This document shows positions 21,062 through 35,597 of a DNA stretch of 64,000 nt, piece after piece. The stretch is from Prosthecobacter debontii (GTDB taxonomy: Bacteria > Verrucomicrobiota > Verrucomicrobiia > Chthoniobacterales > Chthoniobacteraceae). The translations under genes were made by a program, and so were the position numbers. Below the pieces are notes generated by a model, which saw nothing but the letters and a program-made list of their open reading frames with translations, did not search any database and was not told the origin of the DNA. The DNA lies in assembly GCA_945905735.1 (NCBI GenBank), contig CAMDQC010000007.1, forward strand, positions 1-64,000. Direction: 5' to 3'. How positions within the stretch are numbered: position 1 is the first letter of the stretch; each line of letters starts with the position of its first letter.

Positions 21062-22948
21062 ATGCCGCTTCGTCGCCTTATATCCGCTATTCTTTGTGCC
21101 CACATCGCCGCGCAACTCGTGGCATCGGGGCAAGAGCTACAGTTGCGACGAATCGAACCGCCCCTCCCGACTGCATTGGGGATGACTGAGGAAATGCTGC
21201 TCGTTCCCGATGAACTTCCGCTCCTTCCGGACATGGCAGCGCCGGGGAAACCCGCGCCGTTCCGAATGCGCCTTGCACCCGAGCAAGTTGTGCCGGTTTT
21301 GCCGCCGCTTGAGTTTGGGGTAGGGGAGACCGCGTTGACGATCGTGGTGAAGCGGTTTGAGTTCGCGGGCCACACTGTCTTTCCTACGCGCGAATTGGCG
21401 AGACTCGTCGCTCTATATACCAACCGGAAAATCACGAGCGACGAGTTGGAATCCGCGCGGGTGGCAATCACGAAGCATTACATCGACGCAGGCTACATCA
21501 GCTCCGGTGCACTACTGCCCGATCAGGATGTGACGGGAGACGTCGTCCGTTTTCAGATCGTGGAAGGGCGGCTGAAGGAAGTCGATTTGCACGGGAACTT
21601 TTGGTTCCGAGACCACTGGCTGCGGCGGCAATTGGCGCGAGCGGCGGGGAATCCGGTGAACTTCAACCAACTCAAAACCGGTCTGCAGTTACTACGGCAG
21701 AATCCTAGCATCACACAGATCAACGCGGAGCTAAAACCGGGGCTCGAACCGGGCGAGAGCGTCCTCCACGTCACCGTAAAAGAGAGGCATCCCTTTCGCG
21801 CCGGGCTCGTGCTCGGAAATCAACGCCCGCCCAGCGTGGGTGAAGGCTTTGGCGAGATTCGCGCGGAGATGTTGAACCTCACCGGCCACAACGATCCACT
21901 CGAACTTCGATGGGGCGCACTCCGCTGGATGCGGGATGGCACTGTCGAGTTTGGCGAAGCGGACAACCTCTTCGGACGCTACGAATTCCCGATCTCGCCG
22001 TGGGGTGCGACGGTCGCGGTTCACGCCGGGAGAAACGACGCGAGCATCGTCGATGAAACATTCGCCGCGCTCGGCATCACCAGCAAATCCGAGGAATTCG
22101 GGCTCACGCTTCGCCAGCCGATCATTGAGACCCTGAACGACACCGTCGCCCTCACCGCCGGAGCCGAGCGCAAACACAGCGAGACGTATCTGCTGGGGAA
22201 ACTCTTCACCTTTTCCCCCGGCGCAATTGAGGGCGAGACGGACGTTTTTGCATGGCGGTTCGGCGTGGAATGGGTGCATCGCAGCCAGCTCGAAGTGCTC
22301 TCCGTGCGCTCGACGTTGAGCCTTGGCCAATACCGTTTGGACTCCACGCGCTACGACCCCGCGCTGGTCTCCGGCACGTCGTCGGGGCTTGGCAGCGGGT
22401 TCGACCCCGAGATTCCCGACAGCAAATTCTTTTCGTGGCTCGGGCAGGCGCAATACATGCACCGAATTTTCGACGACGGCAAACCGCCCGCCGAGCCCGA
22501 GCAAGGCGCAGTGCGGCTTTTGCGGGAGTCGCTGCTCGTCATCCGGGCCAACGCGCAACTCAGCGATGAGCCGCTTCTTTCCCCCGAACAGTTCAGCCTC
22601 GGTGGTCTGCACAGCGTGCGCGGCTACCGCGAAAACCAACTCCTGCGCGACAACGGAGTCTTCGCATCCATCGAACTGCGCGTGCCGCTGAAGCTGCGCA
22701 AAGACGGCACGCAAATCGTGACGCTCGCGCCGTTCATCGACTGGGGCACCGGCTGGGACGTGAACAAACTCGAAGACCACAACGAGACAATCTGGAGCGC
22801 CGGCCTCGGTCTCATCGTGAACCCCACGAAGCACGTCCATGCCACCGTCCATTGGGGCCGCCCGTTCGTGCGCCTCGCCGAGAGCGCCGGCGAGCGCAGT
22901 CTGCAAGACGCAGGCTGGCACTTCACGGTGTCTTACGACGCATTTTGA
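21062..22948 (+). CDS. TpsB: ShlB/FhaC/HecB-family outer-membrane transporter
   Basis: A 628-residue two-partner secretion transporter of the Omp85 superfamily. Residues 1-23 form a signal peptide. A POTRA region starts near residue 91 (LTIVVKRFEFAGHTVFP) and runs through VRFQIVEGRLKEVDLHGN and the second POTRA to about 250. A 16-strand barrel follows with the conserved VRGY at residues 519-522 and a terminal Phe suited to BAM insertion. TpsB proteins recognise the N-terminal TPS domain of a partner exoprotein in the periplasm and export it. The ATG at 21062 starts the signal peptide; the frame is open far upstream only because it is antisense to the oxidoreductase gene. The partner tpsA lies tail-to-tail with it, 2 bases away. 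Confidence 0.92.
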   Translation: MPLRRLISAILCAHIAAQLVASGQELQLRRIEPPLPTALGMTEEMLLVPDELPLLPDMAAPGKPAPFRMRLAPEQVVPVLPPLEFGVGETALTIVVKRFEFAGHTVFPTRELARLVALYTNRKITSDELESARVAITKHYIDAGYISSGALLPDQDVTGDVVRFQIVEGRLKEVDLHGNFWFRDHWLRRQLARAAGNPVNFNQLKTGLQLLRQNPSITQINAELKPGLEPGESVLHVTVKERHPFRAGLVLGNQRPPSVGEGFGEIRAEMLNLTGHNDPLELRWGALRWMRDGTVEFGEADNLFGRYEFPISPWGATVAVHAGRNDASIVDETFAALGITSKSEEFGLTLRQPIIETLNDTVALTAGAERKHSETYLLGKLFTFSPGAIEGETDVFAWRFGVEWVHRSQLEVLSVRSTLSLGQYRLDSTRYDPALVSGTSSGLGSGFDPEIPDSKFFSWLGQAQYMHRIFDDGKPPAEPEQGAVRLLRESLLVIRANAQLSDEPLLSPEQFSLGGLHSVRGYRENQLLRDNGVFASIELRVPLKLRKDGTQIVTLAPFIDWGTGWDVNKLEDHNETIWSAGLGLIVNPTKHVHATVHWGRPFVRLAESAGERSLQDAGWHFTVSYDAF

Positions 22949-22950
22949 GT

Positions 22951-25845
22951 TTAGCGCAGGTCTTCGGGCGCGGGAGGGAGGCCGCCGCGTCCGATGACGA
23001 GGAAGCTGCTCAGCTCCGAGCTGAGGCGCATGGGGCAGCGTTCGGAGAGGCGAATGTTAATGTCGAGGAAGCCGCTGGGCAGCGCTGTGAGGGCGTTGGC
23101 GAGTTGGGCGTCGGGGCTCTGGATGTCAATGGTGCCTTGCACGCTGGCCTCGGAGGAAGCGGTGATGACGCTCTCGGATGCGAGGAACGTATCGGAGATG
23201 AGGACGATATTTCCCCCGGCACCGAGGATGGCGTTCGCGCTGATGAGGCTGTGGTCGAGGATGACGAATTGCGGGTCAATGAAGACGTCGCCGCCGTTGA
23301 GCCCGGCTTCGGCGAGGATGGTGGAATCTTGCAGGGTGATGCGTTGCGGGGCGATGAGGCGGATGGAGCCCGCGTCGCTGAGGGCGGAGCGGACGGTGAT
23401 GCTGCTGCCGCCGCTGAGGGCGATAGCCGTGGCGGAGGTGAGTTCGACGCTGCCCGCTGCGCCTGTGCGGGCGGCGGCGGCTTCGATGGTGGAGGTGTCG
23501 GAGAGTGTGATGTTTCCTGCCTCGACGAAGACGCTGCCGCCTGCGCCGGGCCCGGCGGTGGTGGCGGAGATGCTACCGCCTGCGAGCGAGAGCGTGCCGA
23601 AGTGGGCACGGATGGTGCCTCCTTTTCCGCCTGCGGTGGTGGAGTTACTGGCGGCGAGGAGTCCGGTGAAAAGATCGGTGGTGCCGGGGGAGAAAAATGC
23701 GGAGCGGGCCGTGACATTGACGTCCCCGCCGTCGCCGGGGCCGAAGGTGGCTGCGGAGATGCGTCCGCCGTCCGCGAGGGTGAGCGTGTCGGCGTCGAGT
23801 GATACGGTGCCGCCTGCGCCGGGCTGTGTGGGGGAGACGCTCTCGGAGAGGATGCCGGTGCCTTGGCGGCTGGCTCCGTTGCTGATGAATACTTGACCCG
23901 CGCGGACGCGGACATCGCCCGCTGCGCCCGATCCGAAGGTGCTGGCGGAGATGCGGCCTCCGGTGCGGATGGTGAGTTCTTCCGCGCCGACGAAGACATC
24001 GCCGCCGTCGCCGCCGAGGCCGAAGGATTGGCTCTCGGTGCCGATGACGCTGGGGAGTCGGCCGCCGGCGAGCGTGAGTTCACGGGCATGCACGGAGACG
24101 TCGCCGCCTGCGCCGAGCCCGGCGGTGTTGGATGTGATTTGCCCGCCGGCGGCGACGGTGATGCGCTCGCTGAGGACGCGGACATTTCCACCAATCCCGG
24201 ATTTTCCGAGCGCGGAATCTGCGGCGATGCCTGTGAAAGATTCGGCTCCGTCGCGGGCGATCGTGAGGTCGCGTGCGGCAATGGTGACATCGCCCGCGCG
24301 GCCGGGTCCAGTGATGCGGGAGGTGATGAGGCTGCCGTCGCGGATGGTGAGTGTGTCGGCGCGGACGGCGATGCTGCCGCCGAGAGTTTGGCGGTCGGGG
24401 GAGTCGTTGTTGGCGAAGATGCCGGTGCCGCGTGAGGCGCTCTTTCCGTTGAGCGCGGCGAGGGTGGCGACGACGGCGATATTGCCGCCCGAGCCGCTGC
24501 CGGTGGTGTTGGCCTCAATGCGTGCGCCGCTTTCGATGCGAAGGGTTTTGGCGGCGACGGTGACGTTTCCGCCGTGTCCATCGCTGGCGGTGCTGGAGGC
24601 GATGCTTGCGCCGTGGAGGAGGGCGAGTTCCCCGGCTCGGACTCGGACGTTTCCGCCGCGCCCGCCGCGCCCGCTGGCGTGGGGCAGGATTGTGTTGGCG
24701 GCGATGGTGGTGTTTCCGCCCATGCGTAGCTCGCGTGAGACGGCGACATCCACGGCTCCGGCGCGGCCCGCGCCTTCGGTGTTGGCGGTGATGCGCCCAG
24801 TCTCCGTGAGGGTGAGTCGTCCGGCGCGAATGCTGACGCGGCCTGCGGCGGCGGTCGGCTCGGTGGTGTTGGTGGCCACGCTGCCGAGGAATCCCTCGCT
24901 GCCGATGTGGATGGCTCCAGAGTTTGCCTTCACCGTGCCTGCGGTGCCGCGCCCGCTGGTCTGCGTGCCGATGCTGGAGAGGCGGAGGTCTATGCGGCCG
25001 GGGACGGCGAGGGTGAGCGCGACGCCGGTTCCTTCACCCTTCGTGGTGGAGCTGATGGTGGATTGGCTGAGCGTAAGCTTGGGGGCGCGGATGGTGATGC
25101 CGCCGCCTTGTTCGTCGCTGGTATCTATGGACGCATCATCCATCGAGATGCCCGATGCGCCTCGCCGCCGTGGGCCTGTGGCGGTGAGCTTGCCATTGAG
25201 GGCGACATCGCCTTTCGCGGCGACGCTGGTGAGGATGGTTTGGCCGCCGGGGGCCTTGATGGCTGCACGGTCTGGGGTGGAGCCGCCATTGTCGTCCTTG
25301 CTTCCTTTTTTGATGTGAATGTCGCCGCCGATAGCGGTGAAAGCGTGGCATGGTTTGATCGCTAAATTCGTGCTGGAAATCTCGATGGAGCGTGGCGCGT
25401 TGGTGAGGAAACCGAAGCTGCTGAGGGCTGCGGAAGTGACGCTGTCGGACGTGATAGGCGCCGTGGCGTGAAGGGTCGTGCCGTCTGCGAAGGTGAAGTG
25501 ATCGGCGGTGGTGACGGCGAAGGAGCCGTCGATATTCACGGTGGCTTTTGGGCCAAACGTGATGCCGTTCGGATTCATCAAATAGAAGTTCGCGCCGGGG
25601 ATGGTGGAGCGCAGTGTGCCTTTTATCTCAGAGCGAGTGTTGCCGGTGACGCGGGCGAAGACGGAGGAGATGGTGCCGCTCTGTGTTTGGGTGAAAGTGG
25701 TGGTGTCGCCGTCGCCGATATTGAACTCGGAGAAGGCGTGAAAAAGGTTCCCGCCGTGCCGCTTGCCGTAGGTGTCGGGGATGACCACGTCTGCCGCGAA
25801 TGTGGCCGCGGGGGCGGCGATTAGGAGCAGGAAGCGGCGGAGCAT
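22951..25845 (-). CDS. TpsA: filamentous-hemagglutinin-type two-partner secretion exoprotein
   Basis: A 964-residue secreted protein. It has a signal peptide (MLRRFLLLIAAPAATFA) and the TPS/haemagglutination domain with NPNGI at residues 91-95 followed by a GGSF-like IDGSFAVTTAD. Then about 700 residues of beta-helix repeats rich in Gly, Ala, Ser and Thr recur as GAGGDV-x-V-x-A-x-x-LTL. The C-terminus has a lone Cys near 936 and SSFLVIGRGGLPPAP at about 946-960. That tail closely resembles the C-terminal signature of cyanobacterial TPS exoproteins. Exported through TpsB, such proteins act as adhesins or surface fibres. Its start is 5 bases after the stop of the beta-strand-repeat gene, so the two are one transcription unit. 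Confidence 0.92.
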   Translation of the reverse strand: MLRRFLLLIAAPAATFAADVVIPDTYGKRHGGNLFHAFSEFNIGDGDTTTFTQTQSGTISSVFARVTGNTRSEIKGTLRSTIPGANFYLMNPNGITFGPKATVNIDGSFAVTTADHFTFADGTTLHATAPITSDSVTSAALSSFGFLTNAPRSIEISSTNLAIKPCHAFTAIGGDIHIKKGSKDDNGGSTPDRAAIKAPGGQTILTSVAAKGDVALNGKLTATGPRRRGASGISMDDASIDTSDEQGGGITIRAPKLTLSQSTISSTTKGEGTGVALTLAVPGRIDLRLSSIGTQTSGRGTAGTVKANSGAIHIGSEGFLGSVATNTTEPTAAAGRVSIRAGRLTLTETGRITANTEGAGRAGAVDVAVSRELRMGGNTTIAANTILPHASGRGGRGGNVRVRAGELALLHGASIASSTASDGHGGNVTVAAKTLRIESGARIEANTTGSGSGGNIAVVATLAALNGKSASRGTGIFANNDSPDRQTLGGSIAVRADTLTIRDGSLITSRITGPGRAGDVTIAARDLTIARDGAESFTGIAADSALGKSGIGGNVRVLSERITVAAGGQITSNTAGLGAGGDVSVHARELTLAGGRLPSVIGTESQSFGLGGDGGDVFVGAEELTIRTGGRISASTFGSGAAGDVRVRAGQVFISNGASRQGTGILSESVSPTQPGAGGTVSLDADTLTLADGGRISAATFGPGDGGDVNVTARSAFFSPGTTDLFTGLLAASNSTTAGGKGGTIRAHFGTLSLAGGSISATTAGPGAGGSVFVEAGNITLSDTSTIEAAAARTGAAGSVELTSATAIALSGGSSITVRSALSDAGSIRLIAPQRITLQDSTILAEAGLNGGDVFIDPQFVILDHSLISANAILGAGGNIVLISDTFLASESVITASSEASVQGTIDIQSPDAQLANALTALPSGFLDINIRLSERCPMRLSSELSSFLVIGRGGLPPAPEDLR

Positions 25846-25850
25846 TTATA

Positions 25851-28139
25851 CTAGAACGTGAAAAATAGCAGGTCGCCAGCGAGTGGCCCGCCGACGCTGC
25901 GCAGGTCGCGGGAGGTGTTGGCGGCGCTGATGGCGGCGATTTTTGCCGCCGAGGTGCCGAGTTGAAAGACGCCCCCAATCGAGCCGCCGAGGACGGCATT
26001 CGTATGCGCGATGGCGTTGTTTGTGCCGACGGTTTTTCCGCTGAATGCTGCGGAGGAAAGCGAGATTTTCCCGATAGCTCCGCCGCCGTTGATCGCGGTA
26101 TCCACGTTCGGTCCGGTGCCGTAGGGATTTCCAAAAACACCGTCGGTCCCACGGGAGATGCCGGCAGCGATGATGGAGCCGGTCATCACTCCGTAGATGG
26201 AGATGTCACCGATGAATGTGCCAGAGGAAATGACCGACGCATCGAGATTTGAGGTGGTGCCGGAGGTGCCGATTCTCATCGCACCGATGGAGCCTTTCGC
26301 GGTGATGGTGCTGCGGATCATCGAGCCCGCGCTGCCTGCGCCTTTGAGCGTGATGGAGCCGATGTTGCCTTCGCTTTGGACGTTGGTTTTTGTCATCCCG
26401 CCTGTTGTCGCGACGATTTCACCGATGCCGCCGGGCTTTGTGGCGGTGATGCGGGCGTCGATGGCGTTGGCATCTACAAATTTGAGCGCCTGAACTTTTG
26501 TGATGGTCGTGGCGGTGAGCGAGCCGCTGAAGTTGCCCGTGCTGGTGAAAGTGCCGATGGAGCCTAGCGCGTTGACGGTCCCGGTGAACGAGCCGACGCG
26601 AATATCGACCAGCGGAGACGCGGTGAGGCTGGTAAGCGTGACGGTGCCGCCTAGAGCGACACCTCCCACATCGAGATGCGAGCCCGCGACGGTGAACCGC
26701 GTCTTTACGTAGCCAGCGGAGAGCGAGGCTGCGGTGGCGAATCCGCCGACATCAAATGTGTCCACGAAGCCTTCGATGGCGGTGCCGATGGAGTTCCACT
26801 TCCCGTTGAGCACGGTGATGAGATTGACGTTTGCGGAGGTGAGCACGCCGACGTTGAATTTGTCCACTTCCAGCACGGCCCGATTGTCGCCACGGACGAC
26901 GATGAACTTATCGATGCTCTGCGTCGTTTTGATCACGCCGGGGAAGTTCCACTCGCGCGCGGAGAGCGTGCCGAGCCCGCCGCCGCCGAAGCCGCCGGGT
27001 GTGCCGTCGCCCGTAATATCAATCGTCACGCCCGCGCCGAGCACGTCGCGGAAGGTGATGTTGGGGTTGTTATTATAGGTGTCGGGCGTGGTGGTATCCG
27101 TGGTGATGTCGTAGGGCAGGCCGGAGCCAAACTTGAGGATCGTGTTTGGATTCACGTCGAACATCGTGACGCTGACCGCCTTGCCAGGGATGTCGAGGTC
27201 GGGCGTGACGTCCGCGACTCCATCGCCAAAGACGATGTGCCTATTGAGCTGAATCGAGCCGATATGTGCGGAGGAACCGTCGCCGATAATTTTTGCAAGC
27301 TGGGTCGGCAATGGGCGCGAGATGCTGCCGACGGTGAGGACGCTGGTGAGGTCGGTTTGCCGCAGGGTGATTGAGGCGAGATTGCTCCCGCCGGGGACAT
27401 ACTCGACATCCGCGTAGCCGGGGCCGGTGAGCGTGGTGGTGACTCCGCGAAACTCTACGCTGCCAGCGCCGACGGTGATCGCGCCGGTGAAAGTGCTGGC
27501 GTTGTTTACCAAGACGAGCTTCCCGCCGCCGGTAAGCGCGGGGAAGCCGGCGAGCGCCCCATCATTGATGAAGCCCGTGAGGTTCAGCGTCTTCGTGGCG
27601 GGGACGCTAAAGCCCATGAGACTGCTGAAGGTGAAGTCTCGCGCGGAACTTACGGAGTTGAGCACTTCCAGAGTCCCTCCATCGGCCATGTACACGTCGC
27701 CCGACAATGCGCCGAGATTCCCGTCGCTGCTGATTTTGAGCGTGCCGCCGGTGAGATAGACGCCGCCGGTGAAGTAGTTCCTCGCGGTGAGCGTGAAGTC
27801 GCCCAAGTCTTGAGTGACGCTGCCGGAGCCGACGAGGGTGAGGCCGATGGTCAAAGGAGCAGCGCCGAGGTGCTGCACTCCGCTCGCGCCGATAGCGACG
27901 CTGTTTCCGGTGATGGAATAAGGCTGAGTGTTGGCACTAAAAATGATGCTGTAGGTGCTGCCGGAAACGGTGTCATTGATGAGAGCGGAGCCCACTCCGG
28001 TGTCGTCAAAGAAGAGCGTATCGCCAGTCAAAGGTGCGATACCGCCGCTCCAATTCGCACCGATAGCCCAGTGCGAATCGAATGCTCCTGTCCATGTGAT
28101 GTTGGCGGGGGCGATGCGAGTTTCGAGAGTCTCTATCAT
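25851..28139 (-). CDS. Beta-strand-repeat surface protein with LEPR-XLL-like N-terminus
   Basis: A 762-residue Gly/Thr/Ser-rich protein. It starts MIETLETRIAPANI, which resembles the LEPR-XLL motif found at the N-terminus of giant surface proteins of Verrucomicrobiota and Planctomycetota. No ordinary Sec signal peptide is present. Residues 15-230 contain autotransporter-like strand repeats (ITWTGAFDSHWAIGANWSGG and FTGGVYLTGGTLKISSDG-type sequence). The second half has repeated short I-G-x-I/F-T-x-x-G-x-F units predicted to form a beta-helix. There is no C-terminal barrel, so it is not a classical autotransporter. It immediately precedes tpsA and probably works at the surface with it; export route and function are unknown. 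Confidence 0.8.
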   Translation of the reverse strand: MIETLETRIAPANITWTGAFDSHWAIGANWSGGIAPLTGDTLFFDDTGVGSALINDTVSGSTYSIIFSANTQPYSITGNSVAIGASGVQHLGAAPLTIGLTLVGSGSVTQDLGDFTLTARNYFTGGVYLTGGTLKISSDGNLGALSGDVYMADGGTLEVLNSVSSARDFTFSSLMGFSVPATKTLNLTGFINDGALAGFPALTGGGKLVLVNNASTFTGAITVGAGSVEFRGVTTTLTGPGYADVEYVPGGSNLASITLRQTDLTSVLTVGSISRPLPTQLAKIIGDGSSAHIGSIQLNRHIVFGDGVADVTPDLDIPGKAVSVTMFDVNPNTILKFGSGLPYDITTDTTTPDTYNNNPNITFRDVLGAGVTIDITGDGTPGGFGGGGLGTLSAREWNFPGVIKTTQSIDKFIVVRGDNRAVLEVDKFNVGVLTSANVNLITVLNGKWNSIGTAIEGFVDTFDVGGFATAASLSAGYVKTRFTVAGSHLDVGGVALGGTVTLTSLTASPLVDIRVGSFTGTVNALGSIGTFTSTGNFSGSLTATTITKVQALKFVDANAIDARITATKPGGIGEIVATTGGMTKTNVQSEGNIGSITLKGAGSAGSMIRSTITAKGSIGAMRIGTSGTTSNLDASVISSGTFIGDISIYGVMTGSIIAAGISRGTDGVFGNPYGTGPNVDTAINGGGAIGKISLSSAAFSGKTVGTNNAIAHTNAVLGGSIGGVFQLGTSAAKIAAISAANTSRDLRSVGGPLAGDLLFFTF

Positions 28140-28261
28140 AATATGGTGATTATGATGGATGTCTTGTGCTACGGTTTATTAGTACTTAAATAATAAATAT
28201 TACGTATAAAAAATCCGCCGATACGGTGCAGGTCGCGGGATATGGCTGTTGAGGTGATGGA

Positions 28262-28290
28262 CGTCCTTGGCCATCGCGCTGCCAAGGACG
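28262..28290. terminator. 10-bp perfect inverted repeat between the DUF928 and beta-repeat genes
   Basis: CGTCCTTGGC at 28262-28271 is the exact reverse complement of GCCAAGGACG at 28281-28290, with a 9-base loop. It lies about 80 bases downstream of the DUF928 stop on the minus strand. There is no T-run, so it may be a factor-assisted terminator, an mRNA-stabilising hairpin or a protein-binding site. The rest of the 229-base gap (28140-28368) is notably AT-rich at 28170-28215 and could contain the promoter of the beta-repeat/tpsA unit. Confidence 0.5.
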
Positions 28291-28368
28291 AAGCGCGGAG
28301 TCGGACGTGAGAGTGGAGGTAGGCGATACGGCTTTGAGAGTGTCGATCATACTCCTTGTGAGGCGCGG

Positions 28369-29082
28369 TTATTTTTTCCGCTCGAATTCAGCGGCAGTTT
28401 TCAGCCCCGCTTGCTGGAGTAAATCGGCGCGTGTGGCCCGCAGCGCGGCGTCTTTTGGAGCGGCGTCGATCTGGTCCGAAAGCGAGGAGAGCGCGTCGTA
28501 CCACACGCCTTTCGCGGCGTACGTTGCGGATTTGTCCGCACCCGCTTTCTCCAGTTCGGCGGAGAGTTCGGGAGTGGGTGGCATCATTTGGACGACTCCG
28601 CTGGCGACGAGGTCTTGCGAACGGTTCTTCGCGTCGGGCACGAGGGCGACGCTCCATTTATACGCGACCCCGGGCTCCAGTGAGATTTTCTGCCGGGCGA
28701 GCTGGATACGGTGGATGCCTGCGCCGCCGTCTTTTTGCTCTGCGAGTGCAGTGCCCACTTTCAGCAGCGGCTTTGGGCTCTTCGGATCGACAAGGGTCAA
28801 CTCGAACCGCACGGCCACATCCTTCGGCGCAGGGCCGGACTGAAACCAAAACAGCGATGGCTGGGCTTGCGTGGTCATGGCGACGTGGTCCGGCGTAAGC
28901 ACTAAGAGCGTGGGCAGCTTCGCGCCGCCAGTGCGCGAACCGCCATCTCCATCGGTGCGTACACCCGTGGCTGAGGATGGTGGCGGGGTGTATTTCAAGA
29001 GCGTGCGCTTTGGCTTGGGCGCAGCGGGCTCTTGGGCAAATGCGGTGGCGGTGATGAGTGCGACGAGAATAGTGGCTTTCAT
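28369..29082 (-). CDS. Exported DUF928 family protein
   Basis: A 237-residue protein with a signal peptide (MKATILVALITATAFA), a short Pro/Lys-rich linker, then a DUF928 domain. Diagnostic pieces are LLVLTPDHVAMTTQAQPSLFWFQSG, KVGTALAEQKDGGAGIHRIQLA and YKWSVALVPDAKNRSQDLVASG. DUF928 has no known biochemical function. It is found mainly in cyanobacteria and is often encoded near CHASE2 and CHAT proteins. I chose ATG 29082 because it opens the signal peptide and overlaps the upstream cyclase stop as ATGA. The last 60 residues (WYDALSSLSDQIDAAPKD) look helical. It is the third gene of the CHAT-CHASE2-DUF928 unit. Confidence 0.87.
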   Translation of the reverse strand: MKATILVALITATAFAQEPAAPKPKRTLLKYTPPPSSATGVRTDGDGGSRTGGAKLPTLLVLTPDHVAMTTQAQPSLFWFQSGPAPKDVAVRFELTLVDPKSPKPLLKVGTALAEQKDGGAGIHRIQLARQKISLEPGVAYKWSVALVPDAKNRSQDLVASGVVQMMPPTPELSAELEKAGADKSATYAAKGVWYDALSSLSDQIDAAPKDAALRATRADLLQQAGLKTAAEFERKK

Positions 29083-31034
29083 TTTACGGCTGGTTCTTTG
29101 CTGGATGAGATAACGCTGTGGACAATCACTTGGTCGGCTTTCCCCTTCAAGCTCAGCGGCCCCAGCAGGCGAGTAACGTAACCCCCGTGGAGTCGCTGGC
29201 AAGTGGCATCACTGATGAGGATCGTACATTCCGTCCCTGCCGTATCGTTGCCTACATCCTTGCCCGCGCCCTCCAGCCTCGCAGCGGTATTCACCGTGTC
29301 CCCGAGGACGGTGAACTCCAGCCGCTCCTTACTCCCCACGCTTCCTAGGACGAGTGAGCCCGTGTGAATCCCAATCCGCATCGCCGTCGTCGGACGCCCC
29401 TCCGCGCGCCATACCTCATTGAGCCTCGCCAGCTCCGCCCTCATGGCCAGCGCGCACTCCACGGCGCTCTTGGCGTCGAGGTCCATTTCCGCCTCCGTCT
29501 TCCGCCCGACGGGAATCCCGAACACGCCCATGATTGCGTCGCCGATAAATTTGTCGATGATCCCGCCCGAGATATCCACGCGGGAAGCGATGCCGTCGAA
29601 GTAATCGTTCATCCAGTCCATGAGTGTTGCGGGGTCCATCCTTTCGGACGTTGTCGAAAACCCTTTAAGGTCTGTAAACAGAACCGTTGCCACGAGTCGC
29701 TGAGGCTTCAGTCTCCCTCCATCCACGAACTGCTCCCGGCTGTCCATCAGCGCATCCACCACAGCAGCCGAAACGTGCCGCGAGAAAATCGACTTCATCA
29801 TCCCGCGTTCCATGCTTTCCAAATACGCCACCAGCGAAGTCACCAGCGTCGCTGCCACCGCGCACGCCAGCATCGGCGCAGCGATCGGAATCCACATCCG
29901 TTGCGAAAGGCCGAATGACCCTGTGAAGTACAAACCCGCCAGCGCCAGTGAAAGCGTTGGCGCAACCTTCCACGGCGAAATCAGCAGTAGCCCAACGACC
30001 CCGCCGAGCAGCGCCGCACCTGCAATCCACAACACCTCCGCCCATTCCGGCCACCACGAAATCGGAGCGACTCCATCCAGCGCCGCGTTCAAGAGCTGAT
30101 GCGTCATCATGATATGCTGCTCCACGCCTCGCAAATTGTTGTCCACGGGCGTCGGCTTGCTGTCTTTGATGCTCTCCATCACCGCCGCCAAGAAAACAAT
30201 CTTCCCCTTCAGCGCTCCCTTCGGAATCTCACCCCGCAACACCTGCCCTGCACTGTAGTCGTAGGGCGTATTTTGCCGGTCCAAATCCCGCACATTGAGA
30301 AATCGGCGCGGAGCTTGAAAATCACACAGATACTCGTAGTCCGGCGGCTCCACCCCCGCATAGCCGCCGGCGCTCCCCGTCAGCCGTGGGATCACCGTCT
30401 TGCCCAGGCGCATCACCTCATTTCCATCCGGCCCAAGCACGAAATCATACGGCACTTTTACCTCCCGCAAATAGGCCAACGTGACCGCTAGACTCAGACT
30501 GGGAACCGGCTCCTCCAGCTTATGCTCCCCGATCAACAGCCCGCGCCGAAACACCCCATCGAAATCCTTCGGCAAATTGTTCGTCGCCACTCGGTCCGGC
30601 TCCTCATCTAGCGAGGGCGGCCCCGCGAAATAATCCAGCCTCGTGATCCCCACCACGCGCTTCAGCTTCTTCAGCGCTGCGTCCAGCTCCGGAAAGCCCG
30701 CCTTGTCTCGCGGCTCTGGAAGATTTCGATAAAGATCCATCCCGATCACCACCGGATCCAGCGCATCAATGCCCCGCAGCACTTCCGCCAGCTCCCTATC
30801 GCTCAGCGGATAGCCATACGTTTTCAGGTCATCTTCCGTTATGCCGATCAGCACGATTCGGTCGTCCTTCGACTCCAAAAGCGTTCGCCCTTTCACTAAA
30901 TGATCATACATCAGCAACTCCGGCACCTGCAGCCAGCCCTGCGCTCTCACGATCAGAACCGCCGCGAGCACCACCGCGCTGATGAGCACACACGCGACCC
31001 GTGGACGCAGAAGATATTTGCGGAGCGTTTTCAC
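29079..31034 (-). CDS. CHASE2-domain class III adenylate cyclase
   Basis: A 651-residue sensor enzyme starting with GTG 31034, which overlaps the stop of the CHAT gene (GTGA). Layout: membrane helix at about 13-32, a periplasmic CHASE2 sensor domain at about 40-330 (LLMYDHLVKGRTLL, RIVLIGITEDDL), three membrane helices at about 335-430, and a C-terminal cyclase domain. The catalytic set looks complete: metal Asp455 (FTDLKGF) and Asp499 (FIGD), adenine-type Lys495 and Thr575, and Asn582/Arg586 in VNTAAR. That pattern predicts cAMP rather than cGMP as product. It would report an extracytoplasmic stimulus, plausibly the state of the neighbouring exported proteins. Confidence 0.92.
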   Translation of the reverse strand: MKTLRKYLLRPRVACVLISAVVLAAVLIVRAQGWLQVPELLMYDHLVKGRTLLESKDDRIVLIGITEDDLKTYGYPLSDRELAEVLRGIDALDPVVIGMDLYRNLPEPRDKAGFPELDAALKKLKRVVGITRLDYFAGPPSLDEEPDRVATNNLPKDFDGVFRRGLLIGEHKLEEPVPSLSLAVTLAYLREVKVPYDFVLGPDGNEVMRLGKTVIPRLTGSAGGYAGVEPPDYEYLCDFQAPRRFLNVRDLDRQNTPYDYSAGQVLRGEIPKGALKGKIVFLAAVMESIKDSKPTPVDNNLRGVEQHIMMTHQLLNAALDGVAPISWWPEWAEVLWIAGAALLGGVVGLLLISPWKVAPTLSLALAGLYFTGSFGLSQRMWIPIAAPMLACAVAATLVTSLVAYLESMERGMMKSIFSRHVSAAVVDALMDSREQFVDGGRLKPQRLVATVLFTDLKGFSTTSERMDPATLMDWMNDYFDGIASRVDISGGIIDKFIGDAIMGVFGIPVGRKTEAEMDLDAKSAVECALAMRAELARLNEVWRAEGRPTTAMRIGIHTGSLVLGSVGSKERLEFTVLGDTVNTAARLEGAGKDVGNDTAGTECTILISDATCQRLHGGYVTRLLGPLSLKGKADQVIVHSVISSSKEPAVK

Positions 31035-33277
31035 AGCCAGTTTCCGATGACAAGATACGGTGCCCAATAGCACGGGTGCGCGTAGCGCGGGTCGGCGATC
31101 AGGCGGCGCTGCGCGGCTTGGAGCGCGAGGGCTTTTGTCGTTCCGCCCGGCGCATTCAGTCCCGTGTAAAAATCCGCGACCAGCTCCGCAGACGCTTGAT
31201 CGTTCACACACCACAGTGTCGCGAATGCCGCGCGGGCACCTGCTTTCACAGCCACGCCGCCGAGGCCGAGTGCCGCCCGGTCGTCGCCGGCGGCGGTCTG
31301 GCAGGCGCTCAGCGTGAGTAATTCGAGCGGCTTATCCGCAAGCTGTCCGGGGCGGATGAGGCGCTCCAAATCATCGAGCGTCAGCTTGTCGGAATGCGTG
31401 AGAACGAAGCTCTTGCGCACGTCCGCGTCGATACGACCGTGGGATGCGATGTGGACGATGGTGAACGGTTCGCCGCTGAACTTCTCTGTCACCCGTGCTT
31501 TCACGAACTCACGGTTCATGAGCTGTTCGCGCTGCGGATACAGCTTCCCGAGTTGGTCCACCTCGACTTGCACCGCGGGCAACGGCGGGAATTTCTGCAC
31601 ACCCTCGGTGAGTCCGCTGATCATCATGCGTGGTGCGCGGAGGCCCCTCGCGCCGGACTCCATCAACTCCAAGCCCGGCGTCACGGCGATGGCGTATCTC
31701 TCGATGAGGAACCCTTCGCCGTCGTGCAGCGCCGCCATCGGGATCGTGCGCAACGCTCCATCCGGGACAAAAACGAGCGTATTGATCCCGCTCGATTTCA
31801 GCATCGGCTCCACCGGCGCGATGAGCAGCGTGTGGAGTTGCCGCGCTTGTTCGAGGAACTCGTTCGTCGTTCGGTTTTCGAGGTTCAATCGGAAGCTCCG
31901 CACTTTCTCCGTCAACTCCACATCGCCGATTGGCGCTTGGTATCGCTCGATGCGGCCCGCAAGGCTCAGCAGCAGCTCCGTGCGCTTCTCCAGCGGGAGA
32001 ATGTAGAGCACCGCCGCAGTCTTCGAAAGGTTCTCCACTCCACGCTGCTTCGCGCGCAAAAGGTTCACGCAATCATCCTGAAAATAGTCCTCCAGCTCCG
32101 CAGACTTCAGCGACTCCGCCGTGGTTCTCGCCTCACGCAGCACGGACTGCAACTCCGCGCCCTTCAGCCCATCCGCACGTTGAAGCAAAAGGTCCGAAAG
32201 CTCGTAATAGATCGCCCCGACTGCCTGCCGGTACGACGAACCGGCGTTGCGATTCCCGTAGCGGATCGCCACATCGTTGCGGATGGATTCGAGCGCCGCA
32301 ATAGCCCGGCGATACGCTTCGGTTGCGGCATCGCGCTCACCCATCTTCCCGAGGATGCGGCCCGACTGCCACTGCCAGCGATACTGCAACTCCGCCACCT
32401 GCAAACGCTGCGCCAGAGCCAGCGCCCGGCGAGTGAGCGCCAGCCCCTCTGGCAGCTTCCGCTCCGTTTCATACAGCGCACCTTGATGCCCCAGCGCCCA
32501 GGAAAGTGCGTGCTCATCGCCCTGCCCCGTCGCCATTTTCGCCGCCTCCGCGTCGAGTTCCAGCGCCCGCTTGCGAAGGAGATTGTCATGCTCAGGAGCT
32601 TCATTAAAAAGCCGCTCGCACGACTTCGCCAGCCCGAGCAATAGGAAAATCCGCTCATGCCCCGTCGGCAGCGCCCGGGCCGCTTTCACTGCGGAATCGA
32701 GCGCCGTTTTTGCCTTCGCAAACTCCTGCGCACCGAGCCACGCGTCCACGAGATTTCGCCGCGCTCTGGCGGCGAGTTCGCCCTTGCCCATCGCCGCCGC
32801 TTCACCAAACGCAGCCGCCGCTCCCGCATGGTCGCCGGTCCCATTCAGTAAAATGCCGAGGTCGTTTTGCACCTGAGCGATCAGCGTAAAAGCGCGGAGC
32901 TTTCGCGCCGCGTTCAACGCCTGCCGCAGCAATGGCTCAGCCTCCGCAGCCTGCCGTGAATACATCAGCGCCGCACCACGCGCCGCCTGCACTTCCGCGA
33001 TGCGAATACCGGATTTTGCCAGCGCCTCCGCGGCGTCCAGCGTTTCCAGCGCGACACGATTTTGCCCCAGCTCCCGCAATGCACGAACGCGGGCGAGCAG
33101 CGCCGCGATTTTCGCATCGCCATTCACACCCTGCGCGGACTTTTCCCACTCGCTCGCCTCCGTTGCGAAATCACACCGTTCCCTCGCCGCCCGCGCAGCG
33201 CCATCGTCCGCCCAAGTGGGTGCAGCCACCGAAAGAACGGCACCGATCACTGTTCGGAAGAACATACGTGAAGACAT
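31031..33277 (-). CDS. Exported TPR-CHAT caspase-like protease
   Basis: A 748-residue protein. ATG 33277 was chosen because it opens a signal peptide (MSSRMFFRTVIGAVLSVAAPTWA). Residues 30-400 are TPR-like helical repeats, for example RVALETLDAAEALAKSG and ERDAATEAYRRAIAAL. The C-terminal 300 residues are a CHAT domain, a caspase-fold peptidase. The catalytic dyad is His613 in IASHG and Cys659 in LSACQTAAGD, both present. The C-terminus YWAPYLVIGNWL is also characteristic. CHAT peptidases act in programmed proteolysis, and cytoplasmic ones (for example in type III CRISPR craspase) need activation. This one appears to be exported. It is the first gene of a unit with the CHASE2 cyclase and DUF928 gene. 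Confidence 0.92.
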   Translation of the reverse strand: MSSRMFFRTVIGAVLSVAAPTWADDGAARAARERCDFATEASEWEKSAQGVNGDAKIAALLARVRALRELGQNRVALETLDAAEALAKSGIRIAEVQAARGAALMYSRQAAEAEPLLRQALNAARKLRAFTLIAQVQNDLGILLNGTGDHAGAAAAFGEAAAMGKGELAARARRNLVDAWLGAQEFAKAKTALDSAVKAARALPTGHERIFLLLGLAKSCERLFNEAPEHDNLLRKRALELDAEAAKMATGQGDEHALSWALGHQGALYETERKLPEGLALTRRALALAQRLQVAELQYRWQWQSGRILGKMGERDAATEAYRRAIAALESIRNDVAIRYGNRNAGSSYRQAVGAIYYELSDLLLQRADGLKGAELQSVLREARTTAESLKSAELEDYFQDDCVNLLRAKQRGVENLSKTAAVLYILPLEKRTELLLSLAGRIERYQAPIGDVELTEKVRSFRLNLENRTTNEFLEQARQLHTLLIAPVEPMLKSSGINTLVFVPDGALRTIPMAALHDGEGFLIERYAIAVTPGLELMESGARGLRAPRMMISGLTEGVQKFPPLPAVQVEVDQLGKLYPQREQLMNREFVKARVTEKFSGEPFTIVHIASHGRIDADVRKSFVLTHSDKLTLDDLERLIRPGQLADKPLELLTLSACQTAAGDDRAALGLGGVAVKAGARAAFATLWCVNDQASAELVADFYTGLNAPGGTTKALALQAAQRRLIADPRYAHPCYWAPYLVIGNWL

Positions 33278-33377
33278 GCTGCGTCGTGTCCCACCGAGTC
33301 GCGCAGGCGTCAATCTCAAAGCCGGGCTCTGCGCTCGCGGCTTGCCCTCGCCGCATTCCTCCGCCATTTCCAGCGAG

Positions 33378-34279
<902 letters not shown>

Positions 34280-34319: not shown

Positions 34320-35495
34320 ATGCCTACGCCTGAAGAACAGCTCGAACTACTCAAGCGCGGGGCCGCGCAAATCATCTCGGAGCAAGACCTGCTCGCGAAG
34401 CTGAAGCTCGGTCGTCCGCTCAACGTCAAACTTGGCGTGGACCCGACTGCGCCCGACATCCATCTCGGCTTCACCGTGGGCCTCACGAAGCTCCGGCAGT
34501 TCCAAGACCTCGGGCATCAAGCCATCCTCATCATCGGCGATTTCACCGCGATGATCGGCGACCCATCGGGCCGCTCGAAGACCCGCAAGCAGCTCACGCA
34601 CGACGACGTGATGCGGAATGCGACGACGTTCAAAGAGCAGGCGTTCAAAATCCTCGACGCTGCGAAGACGCGTGTCGTCTTCAATGGCGAGTGGTTTGAA
34701 ATGATGACCTTTGATCAAGTGATGAAGCTCAACTCCCGCGTGACGATGCAGCAGATGCTCCAGCGCGAGGATTTCAAAAAGCGCATTGATGAAAAGGAGC
34801 CCGTCTTCCTCCACGAAATCCAATACCCCATCATGCAGGGCTGGGATTCCGTGATGATCAAAGCCGACATCGAACTCGGCGGCACCGACCAGCTTTTCAA
34901 CTGCCTCGTAGGCCGCGACCTCCAGCGCGAGGAAGGCCAGCCGCAGCAAGTCGTCTTCCTCCTCCCGCTGCTCGAAGGGCTCGACGGCGTGAACAAAATG
35001 TCCAAGAGCCTCGGCAACTACGTCGGCCTCGCGGAGCCGCCGGAGATCATGTTCGGCAAGCTCATGAGCATCACCGACACGCTCATGGCGCGTTACTACG
35101 ACTTGCTCCTCTGCGAGAGCGTCCCCGCCGACTTGCACCCGATGGAGGCGAAGAAGCAACTCGCCGCCCGCATCGTCGCGCGCTACCACGGCGAGGAAGC
35201 CGGGAAGCGCGGGCGCGATGATTTCGAGTCCCGCTTTTCGAAAAAAGACCTCTCCACCGTCGAGCTGCCTGCCCTCCCGCTCGCCGGCCTCGCGCCCGAC
35301 ATCGTCAGCATCGTCAGCGCCGCGTACAGCGTGTGTTTTCAAATCGCCAAGTCTCGCGGCGACGCCCGCCGCCTCGTGGAGCAAGGGAGCATCCAGCTCG
35401 ATGGGGAAAAAGTGAGCGACCCAAAAGCAACGCCCGCATTCGCCGCAGGCCAAGTGCTGAAGCTCGATAAGACGCGCAGCGTGCGGCTGGCGTAA
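34320..35495 (+). CDS. tyrS: Tyrosine--tRNA ligase
   Basis: A 391-residue class I synthetase of the TyrRS-beta (TyrZ) type. The HIGH signature is PDIHLGFTVGL, followed by IIGDFTAMIGDPSGRS. The tyrosine-binding region includes QGWDSVMIKADIELGGTDQ, and the KMSKS loop is NKMSKSLGN. A C-terminal S4 RNA-binding domain (RRLVEQGSIQLDGEKV) completes the protein. It attaches tyrosine to tRNA-Tyr. The ATG at 34320 directly precedes the conserved N-terminus. It stands alone downstream of lpxA and the heptamer repeat. Confidence 0.95.
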   Translation: MPTPEEQLELLKRGAAQIISEQDLLAKLKLGRPLNVKLGVDPTAPDIHLGFTVGLTKLRQFQDLGHQAILIIGDFTAMIGDPSGRSKTRKQLTHDDVMRNATTFKEQAFKILDAAKTRVVFNGEWFEMMTFDQVMKLNSRVTMQQMLQREDFKKRIDEKEPVFLHEIQYPIMQGWDSVMIKADIELGGTDQLFNCLVGRDLQREEGQPQQVVFLLPLLEGLDGVNKMSKSLGNYVGLAEPPEIMFGKLMSITDTLMARYYDLLLCESVPADLHPMEAKKQLAARIVARYHGEEAGKRGRDDFESRFSKKDLSTVELPALPLAGLAPDIVSIVSAAYSVCFQIAKSRGDARRLVEQGSIQLDGEKVSDPKATPAFAAGQVLKLDKTRSVRLA

Positions 35496-35503
35496 AATGG
35501 GAG

Positions 35504-35523
35504 CGGCGGCACTCCTGCCGCCG
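35504..35523. terminator. GC-rich hairpin just after tyrS
   Basis: CGGCGGCA (35504-35511) and TGCCGCCG (35516-35523) form a perfect 8-bp stem with a 4-base loop, 8 bases after the tyrS stop. No T-run follows. It is probably a termination or mRNA-stabilising structure, or a dispersed GC-rich palindrome. Confidence 0.45.
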
Positions 35524-35597
35524 ATAGGTCGCATGGTCCCGGTAGCCGCTGCAAGTGGCGCAACTGTCGGCGAATGAGAACCGGGCACTGCCCGAGG

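What the first reader, a model, noticed from the sequence alone, without database searches (positions are those of the whole stretch)
21062..33277. A six-gene surface system: TpsB, TpsA, beta-repeat protein, DUF928, CHASE2 adenylate cyclase and exported CHAT protease
Seen: CHAT, CHASE2-cyclase and DUF928 genes overlap by 4 bases each, and the beta-repeat and tpsA genes are 5 bases apart on the same strand. tpsB faces tpsA. Five of the six proteins carry export signals or membrane anchors. Known: TPS exports adhesin-like proteins; CHAT is a caspase-fold protease; CHASE2 is a periplasmic sensor; DUF928 is uncharacterised. Inference: the unit links export of a surface fibre to proteolysis outside the cytoplasm and a cAMP signal inside. 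I recall similar neighbours in cyanobacteria but no described mechanism.
Basis: partly seen in the sequence, partly recalled or inferred. Interest (0 to 1): 0.85.

Follow-up and report, generated by a model that had tools for sequence, protein, structure and literature searches.

The report
Surface-fibre export with periplasmic protease-sensor module
Neighbouring genes for a secreted surface fibre, a caspase-like protease, a small periplasmic protein of unknown function (DUF928) and a membrane sensor recur together across about seven bacterial phyla, so they are very probably one undescribed surface-signalling system and not a chance cluster.

Summary
In detail: all six genes and their spacings are as described. 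The proposed refutation test (neighbourhood statistics) came out strongly in favour. CHAT, CHASE2-cyclase, DUF928 and TpsB/TpsA recur together in Verrucomicrobiota, Pseudomonadota, Nitrospirota, Acidobacteriota and Rokubacteria. In evenly drawn cyanobacteria 53 of 80 DUF928 genes lie within 3 kb of a CHASE2 gene, against 1.0 expected.

Its best solved match is MtxA, a magnetobacterial orphan that also sits next to a CHASE2-adenylate cyclase. DUF928 is therefore probably a periplasmic partner of CHASE2 sensors. (2) The CHASE2 output is exchangeable (cyclase, histidine kinase, GGDEF, GGDEF-EAL, CHAT), so cAMP is not the constant. (3) The TpsA proteins form a subfamily with a C-terminal cap (invariant Cys, SSFxxxGRGGLP), absent from 15 control TPS proteins. 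(4) TPS and CHAT are fused in one frame in two cyanobacteria. (5) The beta-repeat protein is a lineage-specific extra.

Best mechanism, partly inferred: the TpsA tail stays in the periplasm; CHAT acts on it, as LapG does on CdrA; DUF928-CHASE2 reports the envelope state inward. Cleavage of TpsA is untested. No description was found in open-access papers.

The parts
21062..22948 (+). tpsB: POTRA_2 + ShlB/FhaC barrel outer-membrane transporter, convergent with tpsA
22951..25845 (-). tpsA: TPS-domain exoprotein (964 aa) of the capped subfamily
22963..23100 (-). TpsA C-terminal cap (residues 916-961): ERC937-x8-SSFLVIGR953GGLPPAP; found by a profile trained on cyanobacterial TpsA only
   Evidence: (E 2.5e-9)
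25851..28139 (-). beta-strand-repeat protein, no Sec signal; lineage-specific accessory, not core
28369..29082 (-). DUF928 protein: signal peptide + Ig-like sandwich + TPR-like helices
29079..31034 (-). CHASE2 sensor with C-terminal class III nucleotide cyclase domain (GTG start, overlaps CHAT stop)
31031..33277 (-). exported TPR-CHAT protease; His613/Cys659 dyad and Asp693 (numbered from the Met at 33277) invariant in relatives

Best explanation
The locus is one copy of a conserved envelope system. Shown by comparison: TpsB/TpsA, a TPR-CHAT protein with an intact His/Cys dyad and a signal peptide, a DUF928 protein and a CHASE2 sensor travel together. Inferred: TpsB threads the TpsA fibre to the surface while the capped C-terminus stays in the periplasm as an anchor. 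In about half of the family a second Cys at the very C-terminus would close a disulfide loop, as in HxuA/HMW1 and CdrA; the window's copy is the short, lone-Cys form. The periplasmic, separase-like CHAT protease acts on that tail and sets whether the fibre stays anchored, matures or is shed. DUF928, an Ig-TPR adaptor, binds the CHASE2 ectodomain and carries the state of the tail or of CHAT to it, and the cytoplasmic output (here a class III cyclase, so probably cAMP) follows. My estimates: one functional unit 0.9; DUF928 as direct CHASE2 partner 0.7; CHAT acting on the TpsA tail 0.4; signal direction as described 0.4.
For: Unit: 17 of 39 non-cyanobacterial DUF928 loci hold CHAT + CHASE2 + TPS genes although many contigs are short. 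Nine searched genomes have exactly one CHAT gene, and in all nine it lies in the DUF928 locus. In the phylum DUF928 is in 5 of 388 genomes; all five have CHAT (40/388) and TPS (58/388). Where TpsA is not beside DUF928 it is often elsewhere in the genome with the same cap. TPS+CHAT in one frame: L054, L090. DUF928-CHASE2: 53 of 80 copies within 3 kb vs 1.0 expected in 14 cyanobacterial genomes; DUF928 model pLDDT 91.6 best matches MtxA 4z29, E 2e-4, whose gene is followed by a CHASE2-adenylate cyclase gene (PMC4439547). Cap: profile trained on 9 cyanobacterial TpsA finds 23 distinct non-cyanobacterial family members at E<1e-4 and none of 15 TPS proteins from genomes without DUF928; Cys in 35/35, Arg in 27/35; terminal second Cys in 16 of 33 complete members. 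CHAT dyad invariant; model matches Csx29 and separase. Precedent: LapG cleaves the periplasmic tail of the TPS adhesin CdrA (PMC5422565; Cys hook PMC11898600).
Against: No experiment. The cap may be conserved by common descent of the TpsA subfamily or as an anchor alone. The Arg is not universal (S, K, I, W, H occur), so it is a weak candidate P1. Half the family, the window's copy included, lacks the second Cys. Several cyanobacterial DUF928-CHASE2 pairs have no CHAT or TPS nearby. Deleting mtxA gave no phenotype (PMC4439547). Divergent CHAT domains also occur N-terminal to CHASE2, apparently inside the cell, so CHAT need not always act outside.
Confidence: 0.45

Rival explanations
1. CHASE2-DUF928 is the core: an all-purpose periplasmic sensor cassette that is placed beside many outputs and cargoes. 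CHAT and TPS are frequent co-residents, regulated together but not substrates of one another.
For: In cyanobacteria CHASE2 is near 29 of 35 DUF928 loci but CHAT near 9 and TPS near 10; outputs vary; MtxA sits beside CHASE2-cyclase and no TPS link is described (PMC4439547).
Against: Outside cyanobacteria CHAT (26/39) and TPS/TpsB (22/39) are nearly as frequent as CHASE2 (27/39); TPS-CHAT fusions; the shared TpsA cap.
Confidence: 0.35
2. CHAT cleaves some other envelope or foreign protein, and the unit is a stress, predation or defence sensor in which the TPS fibre is the antenna.
For: Related TPR-CHAT proteins act in defence (Csx29 in Craspase, PMC9729208); the fold also matches the transmembrane anti-sigma factor DdvA.
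Against: No PADLOC model matches CHAT, DUF928 or TpsA; only general class III cyclase (PycC) models match the CHASE2 protein. Housekeeping neighbours, no mobile-element context seen.
Confidence: 0.12
3. Independent genes brought together by chance or by hitchhiking.
For: CHASE2 and CHAT are multi-copy in cyanobacteria.
Against: Recurrence across phyla, about fifty-fold excess of DUF928-CHASE2 adjacency, gene fusions, and a single CHAT per genome lying in the locus.
Confidence: 0.03

Closest known systems
CdrA/CdrB with LapG/LapD (Pseudomonas aeruginosa)
   Same: TPS adhesin with a C-terminal periplasmic anchor, a periplasmic cysteine protease and a cyclic-nucleotide-linked membrane sensor
   Different: The protease is CHAT (caspase/separase fold) and not LapG; the sensor is CHASE2 with its own cyclase or other output and not an effector that reads c-di-GMP; DUF928 has no counterpart there; cleavage is unproven here
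MtxA with CHASE2-adenylate cyclase (Magnetospirillum)
   Same: Signal peptide, Ig-like + TPR-like fold, gene beside a CHASE2-adenylate cyclase
   Different: No detectable sequence similarity; MtxA has an extra N-terminal region; no TPS or CHAT partner described
HMW1 / HxuA type TPS adhesins
   Same: C-terminal tail kept in the periplasm by a disulfide loop; about half of the capped family has a matching terminal Cys pair
   Different: The window's TpsA has only the cap Cys near its C-terminus; the cap sequence is specific to this family
Csx29 (Craspase TPR-CHAT) and separase
   Same: TPR/helical N-part plus caspase-like dyad; among the best structural matches of the CHAT model
   Different: Those are intracellular; here a signal peptide predicts export, and regulator and substrate differ

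Membership tests
Two-partner secretion (type Vb) | TpsA with N-terminal TPS domain after a signal peptide | tested here: met
   TPS 113 bits at residues 27-219; signal peptide by eye
Two-partner secretion (type Vb) | TpsB with POTRA domain(s) and barrel, gene adjacent | tested here: met
   stops 2 bp apart
CHAT peptidase | CHAT profile match with intact His/Cys dyad | tested here: met
CHAT peptidase | proteolytic activity | not testable with these tools
   needs purified protein
CHASE2 receptor with class III adenylate cyclase | CHASE2 plus cyclase domain above the curated cut-offs | tested here: met
CHASE2 receptor with class III adenylate cyclase | makes cAMP rather than cGMP | not testable with these tools
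   Lys and Thr at the usual specificity positions by eye and from memory (sequence); assay needed
MtxA-type Ig-TPR protein | Ig-like domain followed by TPR-like helices | tested here: met
   description in PMC4439547
MtxA-type Ig-TPR protein | sequence homology to MtxA | tested here: not met
   sequence searches of PDB chains do not find 4z29; similarity is at fold level only
Lap-type adhesin release | LapG-family protease and LapD-type c-di-GMP effector | tested here: not met
   protease is CHAT and sensor is CHASE2: it may work like Lap but is not a member
Lap-type adhesin release | protease cleaves the adhesin's periplasmic tail | not tested
   only the conserved cap and the fusions point to it
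Disulfide-hook TPS anchor (HMW1/HxuA) | paired Cys near the C-terminus | tested here: not met
   for the window's TpsA (Cys 166 and 937 only); met in 16 of 33 complete family members
Known anti-phage defence system | system-specific PADLOC models | tested here: not met
   only general PycC cyclase models match

The most novel reading that the evidence does not exclude
A widespread, undescribed envelope system in which a separase-like protease outside the cytoplasm controls the anchor of a TPS surface fibre, and an Ig-TPR/CHASE2 receptor with exchangeable outputs reports fibre status to the cell. DUF928 and the magnetobacterial orphan MtxA are the same kind of receptor subunit.
Probability: 0.4. 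Interest if true: 0.85.

Novelty: new variant of a known kind. Interest (0 to 1): 0.73.

Why it matters
It gives a testable role to two uncharacterised families (DUF928, MtxA-like), a natural context and candidate substrate for exported CHAT proteases, and a possible analogue, built from unrelated parts, of second-messenger-linked adhesin release. Modular outputs on one receptor pair would show how bacteria rewire surface sensing.

Tried and rejected
Recent transfer from cyanobacteria: in the DUF928 tree cyanobacterial and named verrucomicrobial sequences form separate groups (support 89 and 86) and the window groups with Chthoniobacteraceae, so it is not recent (quick tree). Defence system: no supporting PADLOC match. 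Arg-specific cleavage at GR by analogy with separase: left open; the separase P1 residue D2151 is Lys in Csx29 (PMC9729208), no sequence alignment of this CHAT to separase or Csx29 was obtained, and the Arg is not universal. Beta-repeat gene as a core part: rejected (4 loci). The CHAT-CHASE2 fusions of cyanobacteria keep a His motif, but a Cys motif was not found by pattern, so their activity is unknown. The first DUF928 alignment was too divergent for a collection scan; a closer subset worked, so that locus set is biased towards relatives of these sequences; the evenly drawn cyanobacterial sample is free of that bias. A paper on DdvA was sought and not held.
Full report
1. Observation. All six genes are present as described. 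Pfam places ShlB+POTRA_2, TPS, DUF928, CHASE2+class III cyclase and TPR+CHAT in them; the beta-repeat protein matches only a beta-strand repeat model. CHAT, CHASE2 and DUF928 overlap by 4 bases each (GTGA 31031-31034, ATGA 29079-29082), the beta gene and tpsA are 5 bp apart, and tpsB and tpsA converge with 2 bp between. The window lies in a 5.19 Mb genome of 258 contigs among housekeeping genes such as IF-2 and NusA. DUF928 and CHAT occur once in that genome, TPS twice, CHASE2 four times. An independent Chthoniobacteraceae genome (L035) has the same six genes in the same arrangement, with DUF928 92% identical.

2. Neighbourhood test. A scan of one genome per species with a DUF928 profile gave 68 loci in Verrucomicrobiota, Pseudomonadota, Thermodesulfobacteriota, Nitrospirota, Acidobacteriota, Rokubacteria, Myxococcota and Cyanobacteriota. 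With profiles grown from the window's proteins, CHASE2 is within 8 kb of DUF928 in 56 of 74 loci and CHAT in 35; outside cyanobacteria the numbers are CHASE2 27, CHAT 26, TPS 20 and TpsB 17 of 39, many contigs being short. The order CHAT, CHASE2-cyclase, DUF928 with an adjacent TpsB/TpsA pair recurs in Verrucomicrobiota, Pseudomonadota, Nitrospirota, Acidobacteriota and Rokubacteria. In nine genomes with a single CHAT gene, that gene is in the DUF928 locus. In 388 genomes of the phylum DUF928 is found in 5, and all 5 have both CHAT (40/388) and TPS (58/388). As a less biased test, 80 DUF928 copies in 14 of 59 evenly drawn cyanobacteria were compared with all 116 CHASE2 domains of those genomes: 53 copies lie within 3 kb of one, 1.0 expected at random. 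In the tree cyanobacterial and verrucomicrobial DUF928 fall apart, so the association is old and not a recent transfer (quick tree).

3. DUF928 and CHASE2. The DUF928 model is confident (mean pLDDT 91.6, 71 sequences) and shows a beta-sandwich followed by TPR-like helices. The best solved match is the C-terminal part of MtxA (4z29, E 2e-4, TM 0.56 by target length). The MtxA paper describes an Ig-like plus TPR fold, reports homologues only in five close organisms, finds no phenotype for the deletion, and states that mtxA is followed by a gene with adenylate cyclase and CHASE2 similarity (PMC4439547). Sequence searches do not join DUF928 and MtxA; fold and genome context do. The partner CHASE2 proteins carry different outputs: cyclase, HisKA-HATPase, GGDEF, GGDEF-EAL, N-terminal CHAT, AAA_35. 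The constant element is therefore DUF928 with the CHASE2 ectodomain. Direct binding is inferred.

4. TpsA. Family members share a C-terminal cap. A profile trained on nine cyanobacterial caps finds the window's cap (E 2.5e-9) and 23 distinct non-cyanobacterial members in all at E<1e-4, but none of 15 TPS proteins from genomes without DUF928 and none of six other, dissimilar TPS proteins in genomes with it; four family-like members score weakly or not at all (L047, L021, L107, L126). The cap Cys is present in 35 of 35 and the Arg in 27 of 35. Sixteen of 33 complete members have a further Cys within ten residues of the C-terminus, and 15 of these have no Cys between residue 130 and the cap. That matches the disulfide loop that holds HxuA/HMW1 tails in the periplasm (PMC5422565) and the Cys hook proposed for CdrA (PMC11898600). 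The other 17, the window's included, have a lone cap Cys and mostly a shorter tail.

5. CHAT. The dyad is invariant in the 35 CHAT domains of DUF928 loci, and most with a complete 5' end carry a signal peptide by a simple heuristic. The model (pLDDT 87.6) matches Csx29/Craspase, the anti-sigma factor DdvA and separase. In L054 and L090 one open frame has the TPS domain at the N-terminus and an intact CHAT domain at the C-terminus, with no cap motif.

6. Mechanism. Shown: co-occurrence, fusions, the cap, the dyad, the predicted folds. Inferred: the TpsA tail is periplasmic; CHAT acts on it; DUF928 relays to CHASE2; the cyclase makes cAMP. The closest working analogy is CdrA-LapG (PMC6156197, PMC5422565), but protease and sensor families differ, so this is at most 'works like' and not a member. 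The main rival is a general CHASE2-DUF928 sensor beside co-regulated but otherwise separate TPS and CHAT genes; cyanobacterial loci without CHAT or TPS fit it well.

7. Novelty. Open-access full-text searches found one paper that mentions DUF928 and none that joins CHASE2, CHAT and TPS as one system. Subscription papers were not searchable.

Noticed in passing
L054:1-4985 (-), L090:1341-7166 (+): TPS secretion domain and CHAT protease domain in a single open frame; L054 also has seven FG-GAP repeats between them.
   Followed up: partly
L067:4285-6687, L071:7548-9890, L087:7473-9899: CHASE2 proteins with a divergent N-terminal CHAT domain and no obvious signal peptide; His motif kept, Cys motif not found by pattern.
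   Followed up: partly
G000:C83 (L022:6964-18273): The genome's second TPS protein is a giant (about 3770 aa) without the cap, ending ...IEVLGYGGGEGPSPR; a relative of the same length exists (G398:C31).
   Followed up: no
window 33000-34181 (+): Hexapeptide-repeat frame with an LpxA-type C-terminal domain, divergent from the CHAT gene and overlapping its 5' end as called; the true start is probably further in.
   Followed up: no
window 34347-35588 (-): 413-aa open frame with no Pfam match; among the loci scanned its relatives are seen only beside the same locus in L035.
   Followed up: no
L041:7326-8866, L014:3752-5351, L078:5934-10669: Tandem DUF928 genes (two or three copies) in one locus.
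   Followed up: no
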